From: an uncultured Allofournierella sp.
GTDB lineage: Bacteria > Bacillota > Clostridia > Oscillospirales > Ruminococcaceae
Assembly: GCA_944382775.1 (NCBI GenBank)
Contig: CALWNI010000001.1
Location: 1-56,103, forward strand
Length of the DNA: 56,103 bases
Reading direction: 5' to 3'
Below are positions 40,505-50,766 of this stretch, piece by piece. Under the pieces are notes generated by a model. The model searched no databases. It worked only from the letters and a program-made list of their open reading frames with translations, and had not been told where the DNA came from. The position numbers and the translations under genes are program-made. The stretch's first letter is position 1, and each line of letters starts with the position of its first letter.

Positions 40505-41674
40505 ATGTTACAAAACGAAACACTGCATTATCTGGACAATGCAGCCACTACTATGGTAAACCCGGCGGTGGCAGAGTCCATTCACAAAACCATGTTGGAG
40601 CATTGGGCAAACCCGTCCAGCTTGTATACACCCGGTTATGAAAGCAAAAAGCTGCTGGAAAAAGCACGGGCAGCGGTTGCCAAAACCTTGGGCGCATCGG
40701 CAGAAGAGATTTTTTTCACCGGATGCGGAAGCGAGAGCAACAACATTGGTATTTTGGGTGCAGTGTTGGCGCGCCGCAGTTGGGGCAACCGCATTGTAGT
40801 CAGCGGATACGAACATCCCAGTGTGGCGTTGCCCGTTGAGCGGCTGCGTCAGCAGGGGTTTGATGTGGTTGTGATTGAGCCGGACGAAGAAGGGCATATT
40901 GCAATCGAAGATTTTGTGCAGGCGGTGGACAAAAATACAATTTTGGTTACCTGTATGCATGTAAACAACGAAATCGGCGCAGTGGTGGATGTGAACACCT
41001 TGGCACAGCGTGTCAAAGAAAAAAATCCCCGAACCGCTGTACATGTGGACGGAGTGCAGGCATGGTTGCGGATGCCCATCAACCTGCAATGGATTGACAG
41101 CTATGCAGTAAGCGGTCATAAAATCCATGCACCCAAAGGCGTGGGTGCCTTGTATTTGCGCAAAGGTTACAACATCCAGCCGCCGTATCTGGGCGGTGGA
41201 CAGGAAAAGGGAAAAGGCGGTGGTCAAGAAGTTGGCGTGCGCCCCGGTACCGAAAATATTCCCTATGCGGTGGGCTTGGCAAAAGCAGCCGTTACCCTGC
41301 ATAAGACCTTGAAAGAACGCGAAAAGCATTTGAGCGGGTTGAATGCGTATTTGCGCCAAGGTTTGGCAGAACTACCTGAAGTGGTTCTGAACAGCCCGCA
41401 AGATGCCGTTGCCGAAGTGGTGAACTTTAGCACAAACTGCATCAAAAGCGAAACCATGCTGCATTTTCTGGAGCGTAAAAACATCTATGTTTCCAGCGGT
41501 TCGGCCTGTTCCAAAGGTGGCGCAAGCCATACCTTGCAGGCAATGGGGTTGTCCGCACTGCGTGCAGATACCGCAATTCGCGTTAGCTTTTGTGCAGACA
41601 ATACCAAGCAAGATGTGGATGCACTGTTGCAAGAGTTAAAACAGGGCCTTGCAACCTTGGCCCGTATTAAGTAA
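40505..41674 (+). CDS. Cysteine desulfurase, NifS/IscS family
   Basis: A 389-aa PLP enzyme that takes sulfur from cysteine. YLDNAATTMVNPAV is the N-terminal signature, H104 (GYEHPS) stacks on PLP, K206 (SGHKIHAPKG) binds PLP, and C335 lies in the short SSGSACSKG loop. It is directly upstream of thiI (30-bp gap), the position of the dedicated sulfur donor for 4-thiouridine in tRNA (NifZ in Bacillus). AAGGGAAAGAAGC precedes ATG. Confidence 0.92.
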   Translation: MLQNETLHYLDNAATTMVNPAVAESIHKTMLEHWANPSSLYTPGYESKKLLEKARAAVAKTLGASAEEIFFTGCGSESNNIGILGAVLARRSWGNRIVVSGYEHPSVALPVERLRQQGFDVVVIEPDEEGHIAIEDFVQAVDKNTILVTCMHVNNEIGAVVDVNTLAQRVKEKNPRTAVHVDGVQAWLRMPINLQWIDSYAVSGHKIHAPKGVGALYLRKGYNIQPPYLGGGQEKGKGGGQEVGVRPGTENIPYAVGLAKAAVTLHKTLKEREKHLSGLNAYLRQGLAELPEVVLNSPQDAVAEVVNFSTNCIKSETMLHFLERKNIYVSSGSACSKGGASHTLQAMGLSALRADTAIRVSFCADNTKQDVDALLQELKQGLATLARIK

Positions 41675-41704: not shown

Positions 41705-42910
41705 ATGAAAGAAATTATCATGTGTTATCAGGGCGAAATGGCCCTGAAAGGATTAAACCGTGCCAGCTTTGAGTCGGTGCTGAGCAAATCGCTGCGTTGG
41801 CGTATGAAGGATTTGGGCGACTTTAAGGTTTACAAGGCACAAAGCACCATGTACGTTGAGCCGCAGGACGAGCAGGCACAGAGCAACATGAACGAAGCCT
41901 ACGACCGTGTAAGCAAGGTGTTTGGCTTGGCAGCCTTGAGCCGTGCAGCGGTATGCGAAAAGGATATGGACATCATCAAGGCAACGGCTGAGGAGTACCT
42001 GGGCCAGACCCTGCGAACCATCAAGACCTTTAAGGTAGAGGCGAAGCGTTCGGATAAGTCGTTCCCCTTAAAAAGCCCTGAGCTGTGCCGTGAGCTGGGC
42101 GGATTTTTGTTGAGCAAGCACCCCCATTTGCGGGTAGATGTGCGCAATCCGGATTTGGTGGTTATGGTGGAAGTGCGTGATTTTGGCGCATACGTTCACG
42201 GCCCCAAAGAGCCCGGCGCAGGCGGTTTACCCGTTGGCACCAGCGGCCGTGCCATTACCATGCTGAGCGGCGGCATTGACAGCCCGGTTGCTGCTTGGTA
42301 CATGGCACGCCGTGGCTTGGCATTGCATCACATTCATTTTGCAAGCCCGCCGTACACCTCTCAGGCAGCACAGGATAAGGTAAAAACACTGGCACAGCAG
42401 ATTAGCCCCTATACCGGCAACTGCATTCTGTATGTTGTGCCTTACACCACACCCCAAGAGTACATTCGTGACCATGCGCCAGATGTGCTGTTTACCGTTT
42501 TGATGCGCCGCAGTATGATGCGTATTGCAAACCGCATTGCAAAGGAAATTGACGCAAAAGCATTGATTACCGGCGAAAGCTTGGCACAGGTTGCAAGCCA
42601 GACCTTACATGCGCTGGCATGTACCGATGCTGCGCAGGATTTGCCGGTTCTGCGTCCCCTGATTGGTATGGACAAAAGCGAGATTACCGTGGTAGCCCGT
42701 AAAATCGGTACGTTTGAAACCAGCATTCTGCCCTTTGAGGATTGCTGCACCATCTTTACTCCGCCGCATCCCAAAACCAAGCCCACGCTGGAAGAGATTT
42801 TGGAGGCAGAAGCAGCAATGCCCGGCTTAGCAGAGCTGGAGGAAAAGGCAGCCGCCGAGGTAGAGCGGATTCGCATTGATATGCGTCAAACCGAAGAAGA
42901 CGAGTTTTAA
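41705..42910 (+). CDS. thiI: tRNA 4-thiouridine synthase ThiI
   Basis: A 401-aa enzyme for s4U8 in tRNA. It has an N-terminal ferredoxin-like part (YQGEMALKGLNRASFE), a THUMP domain (about 60-165) and the PP-loop MLSGGIDSPVAAWYM (about 186-200). GESLAQVASQTLHAL and the LRPLIGMDKSEI element fit ThiI. There is no C-terminal rhodanese domain, as usual in Firmicutes, so sulfur must come from a partner such as the upstream desulfurase. AAGGAG precedes ATG. Confidence 0.94.
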   Translation: MKEIIMCYQGEMALKGLNRASFESVLSKSLRWRMKDLGDFKVYKAQSTMYVEPQDEQAQSNMNEAYDRVSKVFGLAALSRAAVCEKDMDIIKATAEEYLGQTLRTIKTFKVEAKRSDKSFPLKSPELCRELGGFLLSKHPHLRVDVRNPDLVVMVEVRDFGAYVHGPKEPGAGGLPVGTSGRAITMLSGGIDSPVAAWYMARRGLALHHIHFASPPYTSQAAQDKVKTLAQQISPYTGNCILYVVPYTTPQEYIRDHAPDVLFTVLMRRSMMRIANRIAKEIDAKALITGESLAQVASQTLHALACTDAAQDLPVLRPLIGMDKSEITVVARKIGTFETSILPFEDCCTIFTPPHPKTKPTLEEILEAEAAMPGLAELEEKAAAEVERIRIDMRQTEEDEF

Positions 42911-42937
42911 TGGATTGCAGTAAATGAGGTGTGTGCA

Positions 42938-44227
42938 TTGAAAGCAGAAATTATCTGTGTGGGAACCGAGTTATTATTGGGCGATATTTTGAATACAAAT
43001 GCACAGTTTTTGGCTAAGGAATTGGCAGCACTGGGCATTACCGTGCATCATCAATGGGTTGTTGGCGACAACGAAAGCCGTTTGGCAGAGTTGGTACAGC
43101 AGGCAATGCAGCGCAGCGACCTTTTGGTGTTTTCGGGCGGCTTAGGCCCCACCGCAGACGATTTGACCAAAGAAACCGTAGCACGCTGTTTTGGTGATAC
43201 TCTGGTGTTGGAGCCGGAGATTTTGCAGCAGATTCAGCAGTATTATGCTTCTACCGGTCGGCACATGCCTCAAAGCAATGAAAAACAAGCCTTGATTCCC
43301 CAACAAGGCGGCTGGTTTGACAATAAAAACGGAACAGCCCCCGGAATTTGGTTTTATCGGCAGGGAAAACGTGCTGTTTTACTGCCCGGGCCACCCAACG
43401 AGTTGTGTCCGCTCTGGCATGAAAAAGTGAAACCGTGGCTGGCAGCGGAACAAAATCAGGCGTTGTATAGTCTGGTGTTGCGTATCACAGGCATTGGCGA
43501 AAGCCATGTGGAAGAGCTGGTTGGTCATTTATTTGAAAATGCCAACCCCACGGCGGCTATTTATGCCAAAACAGGCGAGGTGCATATTCGCATTACCGCA
43601 ATGGCAGAAAATCAGCAGAGGGGCGAGGAAATGTGCCGCGCCTATGCAGAGAAATTCTATGCCCTGTTGGGAAATGCCATCTATGCAGAAAATGACTGCA
43701 CCTTACAGCAGGCGGTGGTGGAAAGCTTGAAAAAACAGGGGCTTACCATTGCAACGGCAGAAAGCTGCACTGGTGGCTTGGTTAGCCAGATGATTACCCA
43801 AGTGGCAGGCGCAAGCGAGGTGTTCGGTTTTGGTTTTTGCACTTATGCCAACCAGGCCAAGCATAAATTGCTGGGCGTAAGTACAGAGTTATTGGACACC
43901 GTAGGCGCGGTGAGCAGTCAGGTTGCTTCGCAAATGGCAACGGGTGCAGCAAAGGTGAGCGGTGCAGATATTGGCGTATCGCTTACCGGCATTGCAGGCC
44001 CGGGCGGTGGAACCGAACAAAAACCGGTGGGGCTGGTATACATTGCCGCATGCAAAGGCGATGATGTGTACGTTGCAAAACTACTGGTGGGCAACCGCAG
44101 CCGAGAAACCGTGCGAACCTGTGCCGCAAAACGTGCGCTGGATATGGCCCGGCGGTTGGCTTTGGGTTTGCCTCTGCCTCATACAAAAAAGTTTTCTGCA
44201 ACCGAGATTGCAGTGTTGGAAGAATAA
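42938..44227 (+). CDS. cinA: CinA: NMN deamidase / competence-damage protein
   Basis: A 429-aa protein. The N-terminal MoCF-like domain has CVGTELLLGDILNTN and FSGGLGPTADDLTKE; the KH-like middle domain is about 178-250; the C-terminal deamidase domain (about 255-415) has TATAESCTGGL with the catalytic Ser and SLTGIAGPGGGT. It hydrolyses NMN for pyridine nucleotide recycling. The start is TTG at 42938, eight bases after TGAGG; a GTG at 42929 overlaps that site. The next gene encodes a diverged copy of its C-terminal half. Confidence 0.93.
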   Translation: MKAEIICVGTELLLGDILNTNAQFLAKELAALGITVHHQWVVGDNESRLAELVQQAMQRSDLLVFSGGLGPTADDLTKETVARCFGDTLVLEPEILQQIQQYYASTGRHMPQSNEKQALIPQQGGWFDNKNGTAPGIWFYRQGKRAVLLPGPPNELCPLWHEKVKPWLAAEQNQALYSLVLRITGIGESHVEELVGHLFENANPTAAIYAKTGEVHIRITAMAENQQRGEEMCRAYAEKFYALLGNAIYAENDCTLQQAVVESLKKQGLTIATAESCTGGLVSQMITQVAGASEVFGFGFCTYANQAKHKLLGVSTELLDTVGAVSSQVASQMATGAAKVSGADIGVSLTGIAGPGGGTEQKPVGLVYIAACKGDDVYVAKLLVGNRSRETVRTCAAKRALDMARRLALGLPLPHTKKFSATEIAVLEE

Positions 44228-44232
44228 AATAG

Positions 44233-47148
44233 ATGGGTGGTGAGAACGTGGAAGAAAATTGCATCATAGCACTGCGACTGTTTGGTCTGCCACAGCAACA
44301 GGTGGAAAGCGTATTGCAGCAGGCAGCGCAAGAGGGATGCCCAGGTTTGCGGCTGTTGAGCAAGCAGGACGAATTTGTGGTGTGTGTGAATGCCAAAGCA
44401 GAAACCAAGCAACAGGCCGAAGAAATTTGTGCCAAGTGGGAAGAATGGTTTCGGCAAGAATTTGGCGAAGCGGTATTCGGTCGGGATGAAGTGGGCTTGC
44501 CCACTGCGGCACTAACTGCCTTGGCACAGCAGCACAAGCTGTTTGTGGCAGCCGATGAGCCCACGGGTCGTATGCTGGAAGAACAGATTGGCCAAGAAGA
44601 GCTGGCACGGGTTGTGTATGACTTTGGATACGAAAGCTATCGGCACCCCAAAAAGTCGCAGCGCATCCGCTCTGCAAATCAAATGGCAAAAAAATACCCC
44701 GGCTGTCCGGTACAGCCTGTAGCAGAAGCCGCCCATGAGGCATTGGCGGCATCCGGGGCAGATTGGGCTGTTAGTTACAGCAAACAAAAGGGCAGCCAAC
44801 CCGCGTTTGTTTTGGTATGCGATGCAAAACGTGTGTGGCTGAAAACACTGGCCCAAAGCGAAGAAATCGATGCACTTGCCATGAACTGGCTGCTGGATAT
44901 GCTGCGTCGTTTGGGGCAGGATTTGCCCATGGAGGAAACCGTGCAAAGCTTTTTGTACGGCAAAGCAGCACCGGAATTGCCCACACTTATCGAGACGGTG
45001 GTAACCGGTTCGGCATGGGCAAGTACAGCACCTGTAACCAAACAGCAGATTGACGCATCGGCTAAGGTGTCAGAAGTGGTACAGGATGCAGCACAAAAAT
45101 TGTTTGATGAACAGGCGGAACTGTCCGAACAGCCGGTAAAGCGAAACGGGTATGCAAGCCGCAAACAGATGGCCTTTTATGCGGCTATGGTTGTGGCAAT
45201 TGCCGCCATTGCAATTCTTGCCTATGAGCTGGTTTTAAGTGTAAAAAACAATAGCTTGGGCAATGTGGGATATGGCACAGCGGACTATGATACCGCAGCC
45301 CGCGATTATCTGCTGGAAGCCCAGAGCAACAATGGACAGGTTGCGGCATATTTGGCACTGCCCAAATTGGGCGGCACACTGATTTATCAACAAGGCGCAG
45401 CCCAGCCTGTGGAAAACACAGCGGTAGTATCGGCGGCACAGGGCGAAAGCATTGCCACCTTTACAAGTAAGATACAGCCGGGGACCCCCCATTCCAATGT
45501 GGTGTTAACCTGCCCTGCCGATGCCATAGAACAATTGGGTAAGTTGGATGAGCAGGAACTTCTCAGCCAAAACAGTGGCTTTACCATTTACACCAATGCC
45601 GATGTATACCGTTATAAAATTGCAGCGGTGTATTATTGGGACCCCAACGAAACCGGTCGAACCGCTTTTGACTTGTATAACTTACAGGATTTAACCAATT
45701 ATCAAGACTTTTTGACCTTTGTGTTGGGAATGAAAGCCCGTAGTTTGTATGACATGCCGGTGGATTTGCAAGACAGCGATTGTTTTGCAACACTGGTGGC
45801 GGATGCCGCCGATGGTTCAGGCAAAAAGCTGGTGATCACCGGCCGTCAACAGCGCGAGGACGAAACCGGCATTCTGTATGGGAAGTTGATTACACAGGCA
45901 GACCAGCCTTTGTTACCCATGGTGGTTTATCAGCAAACACAACAAGACGTACCTTCCATTGAAACCTTACAACAGTACTGGGTGAACTGGTACCTCACAG
46001 GAGGAGCTACCAGCAGCGATGTGCAGGAACAAAGCGGTATGCCGCAGGAGGATAGCGCAGTGCCCGATGTGCAGGAGCTGGAGCCTTCGGATACGGCAGA
46101 ACCCACACAAGAGCCGGATGCATCGGAGCAGCCCCAAGAAAGTGGGCAGCCTAGCGCACAGCCCAGTGCACAACCCAGTGCAACGCCGGGAGTAACGGCC
46201 ACACCAAAGCCGTCGGCAAGTTCTGAAGCATCTTCCGGCAGCAGCGCAACCCAAGCACCCACGGCTACAAAGGCCCCCACAACGGCAGCACCCACAGCGG
46301 CGCCCACCGCAGCACCTACCACTGCCCCAACAACAGCACCTACCCCGACTCCCACACCAAAGCCGGCAGGTGCAACCATCACCGTAACCATGAACGGCGT
46401 GCGGCAGGAAATGGATTTGGTAGAGTGTCTTGCCATGATTGCCCGTGCAGAAATGGGTGCAGGTGCTCCCATTGAGGCGTATAAAGCGCAGATGATTGCA
46501 GCCCATTCTTGGATTTTAAGCCAAGGTGGTGCCCCCAGCGTTACCGGTCGTGAGCCAAACGAAAGCATTCGGCAGGCAGCCCGTGAGGTGGCAAACATCA
46601 TTGTTACTTACAACGGCAAGGTGGCATTTACTCCGTATTTTGCAAGTGCGGCATTCGGAACCAACCCAAGCCAAGAGGTATGGGGTTCCTCTCGTCCGTA
46701 TCTGGTGGCGGTAGAAAGCCCCTATGACCAGCAGTATGCAACTAACTGGAAAAATACCCGTGTGTTCACGGTGGAAGAAGTGGCAACCCGTGCAAGCGAA
46801 AAACTGGGCGAAGACCTGTATGCCTACAGCGAAGACCCTGCCGATTGGATGGGCGATTTGGTGAAAAACTCGTCTGGCTATGTATTAAGCATGCGAATCG
46901 GCAATTCAACCATTACCGGTATGAAATTACAGGAAAATGTATTGGCAGGTTTTTCGGGCCGCGCCATTCGCAGTGCAGCCTTTGATATTTCTTACAACGA
47001 CGGCACATTCAGCATTACCACCTATGGATATGGCCATGGCTGCGGTATGTCGCAGTATGGCGCATGGGGCTATGCAGCAAACGGATGGAGCTATGCACAA
47101 ATATTGGCGCATTATTACCCGGGTACAACCCTTTCTACCATTGGCTAA
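44233..47148 (+). CDS. SpoIID/LytB-domain membrane protein with an N-terminal decayed CinA-like domain
   Basis: A 971-aa protein. Residues 10-235 resemble the KH-like and deamidase parts of the upstream CinA: LRLFGLPQQQVESVL / LRITGIGESHVEELV and ALAASGADWAVSYS / AAKVSGADIGVSLT. The catalytic AESCTGG is ADEPTGR, so it should be inactive. A membrane segment (about 314-335), a 300-residue external domain, a Pro/Thr/Ala/Gln linker (about 605-715) and a SpoIID domain (about 735-965: IARAEMGAGAPIEAYKAQMI, AAFGTNPSQEVWGSS, GYGHGCGMSQYGAWGYA) follow. SpoIID proteins cleave glycan strands lacking stem peptides. A GTG at 44248 with GGTGGTGAG before it is an alternative start. Confidence 0.82.
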   Translation: MGGENVEENCIIALRLFGLPQQQVESVLQQAAQEGCPGLRLLSKQDEFVVCVNAKAETKQQAEEICAKWEEWFRQEFGEAVFGRDEVGLPTAALTALAQQHKLFVAADEPTGRMLEEQIGQEELARVVYDFGYESYRHPKKSQRIRSANQMAKKYPGCPVQPVAEAAHEALAASGADWAVSYSKQKGSQPAFVLVCDAKRVWLKTLAQSEEIDALAMNWLLDMLRRLGQDLPMEETVQSFLYGKAAPELPTLIETVVTGSAWASTAPVTKQQIDASAKVSEVVQDAAQKLFDEQAELSEQPVKRNGYASRKQMAFYAAMVVAIAAIAILAYELVLSVKNNSLGNVGYGTADYDTAARDYLLEAQSNNGQVAAYLALPKLGGTLIYQQGAAQPVENTAVVSAAQGESIATFTSKIQPGTPHSNVVLTCPADAIEQLGKLDEQELLSQNSGFTIYTNADVYRYKIAAVYYWDPNETGRTAFDLYNLQDLTNYQDFLTFVLGMKARSLYDMPVDLQDSDCFATLVADAADGSGKKLVITGRQQREDETGILYGKLITQADQPLLPMVVYQQTQQDVPSIETLQQYWVNWYLTGGATSSDVQEQSGMPQEDSAVPDVQELEPSDTAEPTQEPDASEQPQESGQPSAQPSAQPSATPGVTATPKPSASSEASSGSSATQAPTATKAPTTAAPTAAPTAAPTTAPTTAPTPTPTPKPAGATITVTMNGVRQEMDLVECLAMIARAEMGAGAPIEAYKAQMIAAHSWILSQGGAPSVTGREPNESIRQAAREVANIIVTYNGKVAFTPYFASAAFGTNPSQEVWGSSRPYLVAVESPYDQQYATNWKNTRVFTVEEVATRASEKLGEDLYAYSEDPADWMGDLVKNSSGYVLSMRIGNSTITGMKLQENVLAGFSGRAIRSAAFDISYNDGTFSITTYGYGHGCGMSQYGAWGYAANGWSYAQILAHYYPGTTLSTIG

Positions 47149-47150
47149 CA

Positions 47151-47186
47151 AAGAGAACCCACCCTGTATGGGGTGGGTTCTCTTTT
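47151..47186 (+). terminator. Terminator of the nifS-thiI-cinA-spoIID operon
   Basis: AGAGAACCCACCC / GGGTGGGTTCTCT with a 6-base loop and TTTT. The rest of the gap to 47460 is AT-rich without genes. Confidence 0.9.
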
Positions 47187-47460: not shown

Positions 47461-48627
47461 ATGGAAAAACCGGGTAAAAAACGACTGCTGAAAATTATTG
47501 GTATTATTTTAGCCGTGATTATTTTGGCAAGCTGCGGAACTGCAGCATTCTTTTACAGCCAAATTGCAGGGGTATTTGATGAGGGCGATGCAGGCACCTT
47601 AAATCAAGAAACCGAAGATGCAGAGGAATTGAACATTGAAAGCGGCGGCGATCGGTTCTATAACCTGCTGTTGTTGGGCATTGATTACGATGCCGATGAT
47701 GACGGACGTGACTATGCCAACGGCAAAGGCATGACAGACGTAATTTTGTACCTGCAAATCGACCGTCAAAATTATACCATTAACGCATTCCAGATTCCCC
47801 GCGACAGTTACACCGGCGAGGATATCGGTGACGGCATTCAAACCCAAACAGGCAAAATTAACGAAGTATTTGCCAATGGTCCCGACCAGGAAAACAAAAT
47901 CAACAACATTGCCAACAAAATTTACGATATGTTTAAGTTGCCGGTTGATGACTACATTACCATTGATATGAAGGCATTTAAAACCATGCTGAATACCATG
48001 GGCGGCATTGAAATGTATGTACCTTGGGATATTGTTACCGTGGATAAAGAAACCGGTAAGGAAGATTTGGTGTGCAAACAAGGCTTGCACCGAATCAGCG
48101 GCGATACCGCGGAGCTGATTTTGCGCAACCGCAATTACAGCACCGCAGACTATAAGCGGCTGGAAACCCAGCAGTATTTCTATGCAGCGTTGGTGAAAAG
48201 CCTGCTCAATGATTACACCTTAGCCGATTATTACAATACCTGTAAGGTGGTTGCCCATTATATCAATACCAGCTTAGACATCACTGAAATTTGGGGCTTG
48301 TACGCCACCATGTTAAAGGTACAGCCGGAAAATATTTATATCGTGCGTGCACCCGGCGGTTCGGCGCACATTAACGGTCATCAATGGGTTTATTACATTG
48401 ACCGTGACAGCTGTGCTGATATTTTAAATGAGCATTTCCGCAGCCAGGAAAATCCTGTTTCGGCAGAGAATTTAGGTTTAACCACAGGTCAAACCTACTT
48501 GTACGGCATGAACATTGACCCAGGCCGCACCATGGGCGATGTAATGCAGGAATCCGAGCAGGGAGAAGCAGAACTGGAGCAGCAAGCAGAATCCGCAGCT
48601 TCTGCATCCGAAGAGAACGCAGCATAA
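47461..48627 (+). CDS. LytR-CpsA-Psr (LCP) family cell-wall glycopolymer ligase
   Basis: A 388-aa protein with a basic N-terminus and membrane anchor (about 9-31), then the LCP domain: NLLLLGIDYD, TDVILYLQID, AFQIPRDSY with the catalytic-site Arg, GKINEVFANG and the C-terminal LRNRNYSTADYKRLETQQ. These motifs bind polyprenyl pyrophosphate and transfer teichoic-acid-like polymers to peptidoglycan. A Glu/Ala/Ser-rich tail (about 360-388) is probably disordered. AAGAGGGCAGCC precedes ATG. Confidence 0.9.
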   Translation: MEKPGKKRLLKIIGIILAVIILASCGTAAFFYSQIAGVFDEGDAGTLNQETEDAEELNIESGGDRFYNLLLLGIDYDADDDGRDYANGKGMTDVILYLQIDRQNYTINAFQIPRDSYTGEDIGDGIQTQTGKINEVFANGPDQENKINNIANKIYDMFKLPVDDYITIDMKAFKTMLNTMGGIEMYVPWDIVTVDKETGKEDLVCKQGLHRISGDTAELILRNRNYSTADYKRLETQQYFYAALVKSLLNDYTLADYYNTCKVVAHYINTSLDITEIWGLYATMLKVQPENIYIVRAPGGSAHINGHQWVYYIDRDSCADILNEHFRSQENPVSAENLGLTTGQTYLYGMNIDPGRTMGDVMQESEQGEAELEQQAESAASASEENAA

Positions 48628-48667: not shown

Positions 48668-50188
48668 TTAGTCGTCGTGGTCCTGTTCAAATTTTAAGAT
48701 GCTGCCATCTTGTGCATTTACTTCATATTCGTATTCCATTCCGTTGGCTTTAAACTCAACGGAATAGTAGGCAGGCTGCTTGTGCAGTTTGTTGTCAATA
48801 TCCAAATCATAAATTTCACTTTGTGATACACCTGCATGGGCAAGCGCAGCAGCAAGAGCAGCGTTCTGACCGATTGTGTTGGCAGGGGTGCTGGTTGTGT
48901 TACCGGAATTGTTGGAGCTGTTTTGCCCGTGAATTTCTTGCTTAATAATCTGGCCGTTGTTGGCATTAACTGCATAGAAATATTGCGTGTTGTTAACCCA
49001 GAATTTTACCTTGTAAATGGTTTGTCCGTCGTCACGGTCGGGAATAACCACCATGCCGTCTACTTGATCCTGTGTGAGGCCGGCAGCTTGCAGGGCAATT
49101 GTGGTTGCCTCGGCTTCGCTTACGGTTGCAGCAGTGGTATCACTGGGAGTAGTGGTAGCGGTAGAATTACTTGGTGTATTCACAGTACTGCTTGCAGAAA
49201 TATCAGCGTTGGCTTTGCTCTTTTGGCTCTTCTTTAAAACAGCACCGGATGTGGCATCAATGTCGTATTCGTATTCCACGCCATTGGCCCAAAATTCTAC
49301 CTCATAGGCCATGATACCGTCGTCCAAATCGAATTCTACCACATCAAAGGTGGCAGCATCTGCCGATACACCTGCATCAGCCAGTGCAGCGGATTTTGCG
49401 GCTTCGGTGCCAATATAGGAACCATCGCTTGCGGAACCAATCGAGGTTACATTGGCAATGCCATTGCCTTGGTTGGAGGCCAGCAAATTCAAATCGTTAA
49501 CACTTTTGTTGGCCAGTTCGTCAAAGGTCAGGGTCGGATTTTCGGCAAGAATGGAATCAATCAGCTGTGCCTTGCCCAAAGAAATGGCGTATTGTTCGGC
49601 CTTTTGGGTCAGTTCCTGTGTTTTTTGCACAGTTTGGCTCAAAATGGCACCATTCACCGAGCTGGACTGCATGACACTGTTTACGGTTTCGGTTAGCTCG
49701 GTTTGCAATTGAGCGGCACGGGTGGCATCATCATCTTCAACGGTAATCAAAATTGAGTTTGCAAGCTCATCAATATAGCCGTTTTTCAAAAGAGAACCCA
49801 TGAGGGCGTTTACAGCAACATCCAGCGTGGTGCCCTTTAAATCCATGTCGGCTAAAATAATGTTTGCATCGTCATTTAGGGGGGTTGCTTTTAAAACCCG
49901 TTCTTTGTTGTTTAAGGTTAGTTCAATGCTGGGGTTTACGTCCAGCGATACAATGGATGCAACGGATTGCAGCTGGTGATAAGCATATCCGCCAAATCCG
50001 GCAATGCCCACCATAAGGCAGGCGGCCGCTGCGGCGGCAAAGATTAAGGGGCGTTTAGATTTGTTTGGTGTCATAGGAAAGACGACTCCTTTCTGTGATT
50101 CACATTTTGCAAGGATTTGCTCAAACTGCTGCGGTGCGGCATGTTCAAGCGCAGTGCGAAGCATTTCTTCGGGACGATTTTGTTTCAT
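48668..50188 (-). CDS. RsgI-like anti-sigma protein with three PepSY domains
   Basis: A 506-aa protein. The cytoplasmic N-terminus (1-46) should bind the sigma factor; a membrane segment lies at 47-68; the SIVSLDVNPSIELTLNNKE segment (78-96) is the conserved start of the RsgI periplasmic region. Three PepSY repeats follow (about 259-321, 356-417 and 439-501) with the shared pattern (V/Y)EF(W/K)ANG(V/M)EYEY. Ser/Thr-rich linkers separate them. The gene overlaps the sigma gene by ATGA. In RsgI proteins the outer domain senses an external ligand or stress; PepSY domains replace the carbohydrate-binding modules known from cellulolytic Clostridia. Confidence 0.83.
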   Translation of the reverse strand: MKQNRPEEMLRTALEHAAPQQFEQILAKCESQKGVVFPMTPNKSKRPLIFAAAAAACLMVGIAGFGGYAYHQLQSVASIVSLDVNPSIELTLNNKERVLKATPLNDDANIILADMDLKGTTLDVAVNALMGSLLKNGYIDELANSILITVEDDDATRAAQLQTELTETVNSVMQSSSVNGAILSQTVQKTQELTQKAEQYAISLGKAQLIDSILAENPTLTFDELANKSVNDLNLLASNQGNGIANVTSIGSASDGSYIGTEAAKSAALADAGVSADAATFDVVEFDLDDGIMAYEVEFWANGVEYEYDIDATSGAVLKKSQKSKANADISASSTVNTPSNSTATTTPSDTTAATVSEAEATTIALQAAGLTQDQVDGMVVIPDRDDGQTIYKVKFWVNNTQYFYAVNANNGQIIKQEIHGQNSSNNSGNTTSTPANTIGQNAALAAALAHAGVSQSEIYDLDIDNKLHKQPAYYSVEFKANGMEYEYEVNAQDGSILKFEQDHDD

Positions 50189-50766
50189 TGGTTCTCATCT
50201 CCTTGCAGTGTGTTTTTTAACTTTTTCAGAGCCCTATGATATTTGGAAAGCACGGTTGCCAAAGGCAATTCCAGTAAATCAGCAATTTCTCGATGCTTTA
50301 AGCCGGACACCGCATGAAGCAGAATAATGCGGCGTTCCTGGTCAGACAATACACCAAAAGCAGCAGTAAGCACGGCTCGGTCTTCGGTGGTAAGGTGCGG
50401 CGATTCTATGGCGAGGGATTCCCACACATCTTGCGGCAGATCTTGCAAATGATTTTGCTTGCGAATTCGCATCAAAGAAAGATTGCGTGCAATGGTCAAA
50501 ATCCATGCCATTGGTTTGCCGTGGTGCTGATACCGATGTGCGTTGTGCCAAATCTGAACAAAGGTATCTTGGGCAATGTCCTCGGCTTCGGCACTGTTTT
50601 TCAGATAAGAAAGCGCAAGGCCGTAAACAGCAGGGTTGGTGCGCTGATAAAGCAGAGCAAACGCATCTTGTTCGCCGTTCGCAGTACGGTCAATAAGAGC
50701 ATCCAGCTCGTGGGCAGGGTTGCAACGAGCTGCCTGATTGGCCATAGTGCTTAGTACAAATATCAT
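50185..50766 (-). CDS. ECF-type RNA polymerase sigma factor
   Basis: A 193-aa sigma-70 family protein with region 2 (about 28-95: ALLYQRTNPAVYGLALSYLK, AEDIAQDTFVQIW, and PMAWILTIARNLSL) and region 4 (about 125-185: LSDQERRIILLHAVSGLKHR, EIADLLELPLATVLSKYHRA). Region 3 is absent, as in ECF factors. The start at 50766 has AGGAGC nine bases before. The ATGA overlap with the anti-sigma gene gives equal expression. Targets cannot be told. Confidence 0.92.
   Translation of the reverse strand: MIFVLSTMANQAARCNPAHELDALIDRTANGEQDAFALLYQRTNPAVYGLALSYLKNSAEAEDIAQDTFVQIWHNAHRYQHHGKPMAWILTIARNLSLMRIRKQNHLQDLPQDVWESLAIESPHLTTEDRAVLTAAFGVLSDQERRIILLHAVSGLKHREIADLLELPLATVLSKYHRALKKLKNTLQGDENQ

What the first reader, a model, noticed from the sequence alone, without database searches (positions are those of the whole stretch)
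44233..47148. SpoIID-like protein built on a decayed copy of the neighbouring CinA
Residues about 10-235 line up in order with CinA residues about 178-400. Matches: LRLFGLPQQQVESVL / LRITGIGESHVEELV; NAKAETKQQAEEIC / TAMAENQQRGEEMC; the position of the deamidase AESCTGG holds ADEPTGR; SGADWAVSY / SGADIGVSL; NWLLDMLRRL / KRALDMARRL. The catalytic Ser is lost, so it looks like a pseudo-enzyme sensing domain in the cytoplasm, joined by a membrane helix to an external SpoIID domain. A tandem partial duplication of cinA followed by fusion would explain it. I know of no described SpoIID protein with this architecture; it might couple pyridine nucleotide state to cell-wall cleavage.
Basis: partly seen in the sequence, partly recalled or inferred. 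Interest (0 to 1): 0.75.

Follow-up and report, generated by a model that had tools for sequence, protein, structure and literature searches.

The report
CinA–sortase–SpoIID fusion with dead enzymes
A gut bacterium makes a membrane-spanning wall-cutting protein that carries two conserved but apparently inactive enzyme domains, a nucleotide-recycling one inside the cell and a protein-anchoring one outside, and its relatives show how three neighbouring genes were joined and two of the enzymes lost their active sites.

Summary
Residues ~11-231 of the 971-aa ORF at 44233-47148 are a CinA KH+deamidase pair: Pfam KH over cut-off, AF2 pLDDT 89, and the first 21 PDB fold matches are CinA/PncC. The catalytic Ser, the GIAGP loop and a conserved Arg are lost. 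Residues ~350-601 are a decayed class B sortase (profile-profile probability 97%; six best PDB hits all sortase B) without its His, Cys and Arg. SpoIID keeps its Glu740.

The tandem-duplication story needs correcting. The locus nifS–thiI–cinA/pncC is kept across the order. srtB and spoIID follow as separate genes in some genera and are fused to it in many: at least 34 of 61 family genomes, and none of 119 genomes from other orders. A within-genus duplication is rejected (AU p 5e-60).

Tethered CinA is intact in 16 genomes, none with a second copy detected. It is degraded or missing in 27, of which 24 have a separate intact copy. The dead domains evolve under purifying selection, strongly in one species group, weakly in another. 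Best reading: a membrane-anchored lytic transglycosylase with domesticated pseudo-CinA and pseudo-sortase. Pseudo-CinA probably acts as a dimerisation or CinA-docking module, which is inferred and untested.

The parts
44233..47148 (+). fusion gene (971 aa from ATG 44233; probable start GTG 44248)
44263..44490 (+). pseudo-CinA KH domain, residues 11-86; GIGES motif replaced by GLPQQ
   Evidence: Pfam PF18146 over cut-off; custom profile; residue table
44491..44925 (+). pseudo-CinA NMN-deamidase domain, residues 87-231; S31 place is Glu109, GIAGPG loop missing, Arg lost, Y58/K63 equivalents kept (Tyr136, Lys141)
   Evidence: catalytic residues from PMC5384747 passages
45181..45237 (+). single predicted membrane helix, residues 317-335
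   Evidence: hydropathy scan
45280..46035 (+). pseudo-sortase B domain, residues 350-601; His aligned to a gap, Cys to Asp524, Arg to Lys532
   Evidence: TIGR03064 E 2.2e-4, under cut-off; hhalign 97.1%, C-terminal 145 columns; six best PDB hits sortase B
46036..46362 (+). linker rich in Pro/Ser/Thr/Ala, residues 602-710
   Evidence: translation
46363..47142 (+). SpoIID/LytB lytic transglycosylase domain, residues 711-970, catalytic Glu740 kept
   Evidence: TIGR02669 over cut-off; PF08486 over cut-off; 5i1t/5txu E 2e-28; numbering
42929..44227 (+). intact full-length cinA (MoCF-KH-deamidase), five bases upstream
41705..42910 (+). thiI, conserved upstream neighbour
   Evidence: Pfam ThiI; synteny
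40505..41674 (+). nifS-like class V aminotransferase, conserved upstream neighbour
   Evidence: Pfam; synteny
47150..47185 (+). terminator-like hairpin (16 pairs) directly after the fusion gene
   Evidence: consensus match only (21 such sites found in the stretch, 11.9 expected)

Best explanation
The gene encodes a single-pass membrane protein: cytoplasmic pseudo-CinA (KH + dead deamidase), a membrane helix, an external pseudo-sortase B, a linker, and an external SpoIID lytic transglycosylase with its catalytic Glu. Shown by sequence: the domains, the lost residues, the conserved locus nifS-thiI-cinA/pncC with srtB and spoIID behind it, and a series from separate genes to one fused chain with loss of the CinA and sortase active sites. 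Inferred: the topology, and that the chain cuts glycan strands at the membrane. Also inferred: the CinA-type part, which comes from a dimeric enzyme, pairs chains with each other or with the active CinA made by the gene just upstream, holding CinA at the wall-cutting site in trans where other genera do so in cis. The pseudo-sortase is a wall or protein-binding spacer.
For: Domains. Residues. In 37 chains with CinA deamidase + sortase: 10 both intact, 6 only CinA intact, 6 only sortase intact, 15 neither (one of these, G030, is cut by a contig end). The SpoIID Glu is kept in 29 of 29 fused SpoIID chains. The sortase triad is intact in 7 of 26 of those that also carry a sortase, and in 26 of 26 free-standing sortases of the fetched loci.

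One predicted membrane helix lies between deamidase and sortase in 36 of 37 chains. Synteny: 68 of 69 fetched loci that hold thiI are followed within 2.5 kb by a CinA/sortase/SpoIID ORF, a few genomes being counted twice; in the 69th thiI and pncC are one ORF. Fused intact deamidase: 16 of 16 genomes show a single PF02464 match; degraded or missing: 24 of 27 have a separate intact one (Fisher p 3.7e-9, not corrected for kinship).

dN/dS of pseudo-CinA is 0.03-0.14 in four pairs of the window's genus. In G036 and G051 the pseudo-CinA-helix stands next to cinA without sortase or SpoIID in the fetched stretch. G046 carries an intact CinA directly on a related wall half. Dimeric CinA: PMC4246079 passages.
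Against: No experiment and no complex prediction supports CinA docking or dimerisation. The AF2 model of the middle domain failed (pLDDT 44), so its sortase fold rests on sequence profiles; Pfam's Sortase model does not find it, and A3 was chosen from hits of my own iterated profile. In three Fournierella MAG pairs constraint on the dead domains is weak (0.27-0.38) and in part no stronger than on the linkers. G031, G037 and G042 have a degraded CinA-type part and no second CinA found (87, 91 and 84% complete). Six of the 16 single-copy genomes are under 90% complete. In 12 genomes the intact free CinA is not beside the fusion. Deep branches of the CinA tree are unresolved and long branches are present. 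One G013 SpoIID-type ORF lacks the Glu.
Confidence: 0.6

Rival explanations
1. The pseudo-CinA domain is a sensor: it binds a pyridine nucleotide (NMN, ADP-ribose) and switches the external SpoIID enzyme through the membrane helix.
For: CinA fold kept; Tyr58 and Lys63 equivalents kept in the window protein; a single predicted helix links inside and outside.
Against: The GIAGPG loop, a conserved Arg, Ser31 and GIGES are lost and the MoCF domain is absent, so the known NMN and ADP-ribose sites look broken. The Lys is Arg in several kin.
Confidence: 0.12
2. The N-terminal and middle domains are passengers: the genes fused by loss of stop codons, selection acts on SpoIID alone, and the rest is a membrane anchor and spacer.
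For: SpoIID Glu is the one active site never lost in fused chains (29 of 29); both other sites are lost in many. In three Fournierella MAG pairs the dead domains have dN/dS 0.27-0.38, in part as high as the linkers.
Against: In four pairs of the window's genus pseudo-CinA and pseudo-sortase dN/dS is 0.03-0.14 and below both linkers of the same pair; many invariant columns in both domains; pseudo-CinA stands without SpoIID in G036 and G051.
Confidence: 0.2
3. It is a sporulation protein, a second SpoIID for engulfment.
For: SpoIID homology; SpoIIP is present in the genome.
Against: A further SpoIID-type gene of 361 aa is at C1:91469-92011. Fused chains occur in G023 and G046, which are over 90% complete and show no SpoIIP. 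The locus is that of nifS-thiI-cinA. The spore_II_D model stays under its cut-off.
Confidence: 0.1

Closest known systems
CinA / PncC NMN deamidase (PF02464, PF18146)
   Same: KH + deamidase fold, order of domains, Tyr58 and Lys63 equivalents
   Different: no MoCF (COG1058) domain, catalytic Ser lost, GIAGP loop and Arg lost, joined to a membrane helix and wall domains
Class B sortase (TIGR03064, PF04203)
   Same: profile match strongest over the C-terminal part; relatives with intact active site lie next to or fused to CinA
   Different: His, Cys and Arg of the active site all lost; sits inside a larger chain
SpoIID/LytB lytic transglycosylase (TIGR02669, PF08486; C. difficile SpoIID 5i1t/5txu)
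   Same: domain, catalytic Glu, C-terminal GYGHGxGMSQ motif
   Different: carried on CinA and sortase domains; 14 residues between the two matched blocks where C. difficile SpoIID has about 45; under the sporulation equivalog cut-off

Membership tests
CinA / PncC NMN deamidase | KH + deamidase fold | tested here: met
   Foldseek ranks 1-21 all CinA/PncC, CinA_KH over cut-off (deamidase model under its cut-off)
CinA / PncC NMN deamidase | catalytic Ser31 | tested here: not met
   Glu109 at that place; Ser31 role from PMC5384747 passages
CinA / PncC NMN deamidase | catalytic Lys63 and Tyr58 | tested here: met
   Lys141 and Tyr136; Lys becomes Arg in some kin
CinA / PncC NMN deamidase | GIAGPG loop and phosphate Arg | tested here: not met
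   that the Arg of xVR is R145 is my assignment
CinA / PncC NMN deamidase | N-terminal MoCF/COG1058 domain | tested here: not met
   single-domain PncC lacks it too
Class B sortase | sortase B profile match | tested here: met
   hhalign 97.1% vs 8 relatives, control 0.2%; PDB sortase B E 9e-5; TIGR03064 E 2.2e-4 but under its cut-off; Pfam Sortase not listed at E up to 1
Class B sortase | His-Cys-Arg active site | tested here: not met
Class B sortase | predicted sortase fold | tested here: inconclusive
   AF2 pLDDT 43.9
SpoIID/LytB | family model over cut-off | tested here: met
   TIGR02669 129.1 vs 83.3 bits; PF08486 24.3 vs 23 bits
SpoIID/LytB | catalytic Glu | tested here: met
   Glu740 aligned to the Glu of the GEM motif of C. 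difficile SpoIID; catalytic role recalled
Sporulation SpoIID (equivalog TIGR02870) | score over equivalog cut-off | tested here: not met
   132.3 vs 234.75 bits
SpoIID/LytB | lytic transglycosylase activity | not testable with these tools
   needs an assay

The most novel reading that the evidence does not exclude
A previously undescribed transmembrane system of this order: an enzyme of pyridine-nucleotide recycling (CinA) is held, in cis by fusion or in trans by docking on a pseudo-CinA, at a complex of sortase B and SpoIID, so that NMN or ADP-ribose turnover inside is coupled to wall cutting outside.
Probability: 0.2. Interest if true: 0.9.

Novelty: new variant of a known kind. Interest (0 to 1): 0.74.

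Why it matters
A cytoplasmic nucleotide enzyme and two external wall enzymes have been joined into one chain in many genera of one bacterial family, and living genomes show many of the steps: separate genes, pairs, three-way fusions, then loss of one or both active sites while the domains stay. It is a natural experiment on how enzymes become pseudoenzymes, and it makes a physical link between CinA and the cell wall directly testable.

Tried and rejected
Recent tandem duplication of the neighbouring cinA: rejected. Folding the middle domain: unusable model, so no fold search was run on it. Pfam on the window protein alone shows no sortase, nor on L046, L061, L064 and L075; the session's profile finds one in the first three, NCBIfam in L064 and the window protein but not L046. 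Weak matches (MmeI_N, sea anemone cytotoxin; fragaceatoxin, equinatoxin), best E 0.006, I take as chance. Promoter scan: 10 found, 9.3 expected, not used.

Literature (listings only): CinA+SpoIID+sortase 0 papers, CinA+SpoIID+fusion 0, CinA+SpoIID 0, SpoIID+sortase+Faecalibacterium 0, SpoIID+sortase 3, not on this subject by title and start of abstract; searches listed nothing on it among the rows shown (15 of 22, 20 of 60, 3 of 3). PMC5384747 and PMC4246079: found, passages seen. The library is open-licence PMC only.

Rows dropped: the tree took ORFs with both KH and a deamidase match over 100 profile positions (66), less G028_L113; the AU tests left out nine of the 66 by name (long, short or partial). 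Profile hits covering under 50-60% of a domain were dropped. The SpoIID tree is a quick one without bootstrap.

Full report
WHAT IS THERE. The ORF at 44233-47148 (+) is intact, 971 aa, and starts five bases after the cinA stop. In 8 of 8 aligned relatives a Met stands at the column of Val6, so GTG 44248 is the more likely start. A terminator-like hairpin follows at 47150-47185. Upstream lie nifS, thiI and an intact three-domain cinA.

THE CinA PART IS REAL. BLASTP with the neighbour: 25% over 12-236, E 2e-22 for one comparison. Pfam CinA_KH passes its cut-off; the deamidase model does not. NCBIfam CinA E 3.8e-13. A profile of nine sequences finds CinA 6mr3 at E 2.9e-6 and PncC 2a9s at 9e-4. 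AF2 with nine sequences gave pLDDT 88.7, and the first 21 Foldseek matches in PDB are CinA or PncC, best E 6.3e-12, with query TM 0.60-0.69 for the CinA chains of ranks 1-6. Catalytic residues were taken from passages of PMC5384747: S31A, K63A, Y58A and R145A had no detectable activity. PMC4246079 passages describe a dimer and GIGES in the KH domain near bound ADP-ribose. In the window protein Ser31 is Glu109, the GIAGPG loop is missing, a conserved Arg is lost and GIGES is GLPQQ, while Tyr136 and Lys141 remain (that this Arg is R145 is my assignment). It is therefore most likely a dead deamidase.

A MISSED DOMAIN. Residues about 350-601 are a decayed class B sortase. NCBIfam TIGR03064 matches residues 433-522 at E 2.2e-4, below its cut-off. 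A profile of nine sequences against PDB gives sortase B as its six best hits, E 9e-5 to 0.01; the next is an alginate lyase at 0.24. hhalign against eight sortases of the same gene cluster gives 97.1% over 145 columns; the control against the CinA part gives 0.2%. The N-terminal third of the domain rests on the session's own profile. His, Cys and Arg are gone. The AF2 model of this part failed (pLDDT 44). The SpoIID domain is clear and keeps Glu740.

FAMILY-WIDE HISTORY. I searched 100 genomes, the window's among them, found ten named loci, called Gemmiger, Fournierella or uncultured Oscillospiraceae, and fetched regions. 68 of 69 fetched loci with thiI are followed within 2.5 kb by a CinA, sortase or SpoIID ORF (a few genomes are there twice); in the 69th (G086) thiI and pncC share one ORF. 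Not every piece is there: some SpoIID chains and genes lie in loci without thiI, for example L051 (G043) and L059 (G028). In some genera pncC or cinA, one to three sortases and spoIID are separate genes in a row (G019, G021, G032, G040, G045, G049, G054). Others have CinA-type and sortase fused with spoIID next (G007, G029, G096, G074), sortase and spoIID fused (G039), or all three in one ORF (22 family genomes). CinA-type domains are fused to sortase and/or SpoIID in 34 of 61 family genomes and 5 of 39 genomes of other families of the order (lower bounds, since only loci pointed to by earlier searches were fetched). In a draw of the same class, 119 genomes of other orders had a CinA match and the longest CinA frame was 471 aa, so none is fused. 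Pfam alone finds CinA, Sortase and SpoIID all over cut-off in one ORF of G056 (1310 aa). In G034, G028 and G043 the chain at this locus carries Big_2 Ig-like repeats in place of SpoIID.

DECAY FOLLOWS A PATTERN. Among 37 chains with deamidase and sortase: 10 have both active sites, 6 only CinA, 6 only sortase, 15 neither (G030 of the last class is cut by a contig end). SpoIID Glu: 29 of 29 fused chains; among 30 SpoIID-only ORFs 24 show it, five are too partial to tell and one (G013) lacks it. Sortase triad: 7 of 26 chains that also carry SpoIID, but 26 of 26 free-standing sortases. Free full CinA: 40 of 40 intact; free PncC 18 of 19, the odd one (G035) with another CinA elsewhere. The 16 genomes whose fused deamidase is intact (Ser, Tyr, Lys, Thr, Arg all kept) each have exactly one PF02464 match; 10 of them are at least 90% complete. 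Of 27 genomes with a degraded or missing CinA-type deamidase, 24 have a separate intact one; the exceptions G031, G037 and G042 are 87, 91 and 84% complete. For G042 and G057 the chain is cut by the contig end, so the tether itself is not seen. Fisher p 3.7e-9 ignores kinship, and 14 of the 27 belong to one clade.

ORIGIN. In the KH+deamidase tree the window-type N domains (16 rows, nine genera by handle plus two named MAGs) form one clade, 99/99, with a long stem. A duplication within the genus is rejected (p 5e-60), also one within genus + G026 + the two Fournierella MAGs (p 4e-4); the groups were named after the tree was seen. The full CinA of G046, fused to a dead sortase and SpoIID, groups with free CinAs of G036 and G051 (94/85; within the same 17-row group but unresolved), while its SpoIID is among the nearest outside the window clade (SH-aLRT 97). 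So a CinA directly attached and a CinA beside a pseudo-CinA tether may be interchangeable in evolution.

CONSTRAINT. In four pairs of the window's genus (G001-G002, G001-G006, G002-G006, G001-G003) dN/dS is 0.03-0.14 for pseudo-CinA, 0.09-0.14 for pseudo-sortase, 0.03-0.05 for SpoIID, 0.10-0.14 for CinA and 0.11-0.46 for the linkers. In three Fournierella MAG pairs pseudo-CinA shows 0.33-0.38 and pseudo-sortase 0.27-0.33, against 0.15-0.28 for SpoIID and 0.20-0.55 for the linkers, so there the dead domains are not clearly more constrained than linkers. The pair with the window protein is saturated at silent sites in part and is not used.

FUNCTION. One predicted helix stands between deamidase and sortase in 36 of 37 chains, so CinA is probably inside and the wall domains outside. 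Inferred: glycan cutting by SpoIID; dimerisation or CinA docking by pseudo-CinA. In favour of a role of its own, G036 and G051 have pseudo-CinA plus helix beside cinA with no sortase or SpoIID in the stretch fetched. A sporulation role is less likely: SpoIIP is found in 17 of 21 genomes tested; it is not found in G004 and G007 (under 90% complete), nor in G023 and G046, both over 90% complete and carrying the fusion. The window genome has SpoIIP and another SpoIID-type gene.

NOVELTY. Searches of an open-licence library found no description; subscription papers and preprints are not covered.

Noticed in passing
window 48668-50188 (-) and 50185-50766 (-): A sigma-70-type factor gene overlapping a gene for a membrane protein with repeated PepSY-like stretches, looking like a sigma/anti-sigma pair (by eye from the translation).
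   Followed up: no
window 47461-48627: LytR-CpsA-Psr protein gene follows the fusion after a hairpin and is next to it in the related Gemmiger/Fournierella loci, on the other strand in L010 and L039.
   Followed up: partly
L085, L086, L087 (G034, G028, G043): At the same thiI locus a chain of divergent CinA, helix, intact sortase B and Big_2 Ig-like repeats in place of SpoIID.
   Followed up: partly
L093 4350-5378; L091 1172-2077: Pseudo-CinA with a membrane helix but without sortase or SpoIID directly behind cinA.
   Followed up: partly
L133 3846-5567 (G086): ThiI and PncC domains in one 574-aa ORF.
   Followed up: partly
L072, L062: Three and four class B sortase genes in a row before spoIID; one in L062 is 867 aa with a long N part without Pfam match at E 0.01.
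   Followed up: no
L071 6436-11085 (G024): 1550-aa protein with choline-binding repeats, GH25 lysozyme and SpoIID domain.
   Followed up: no
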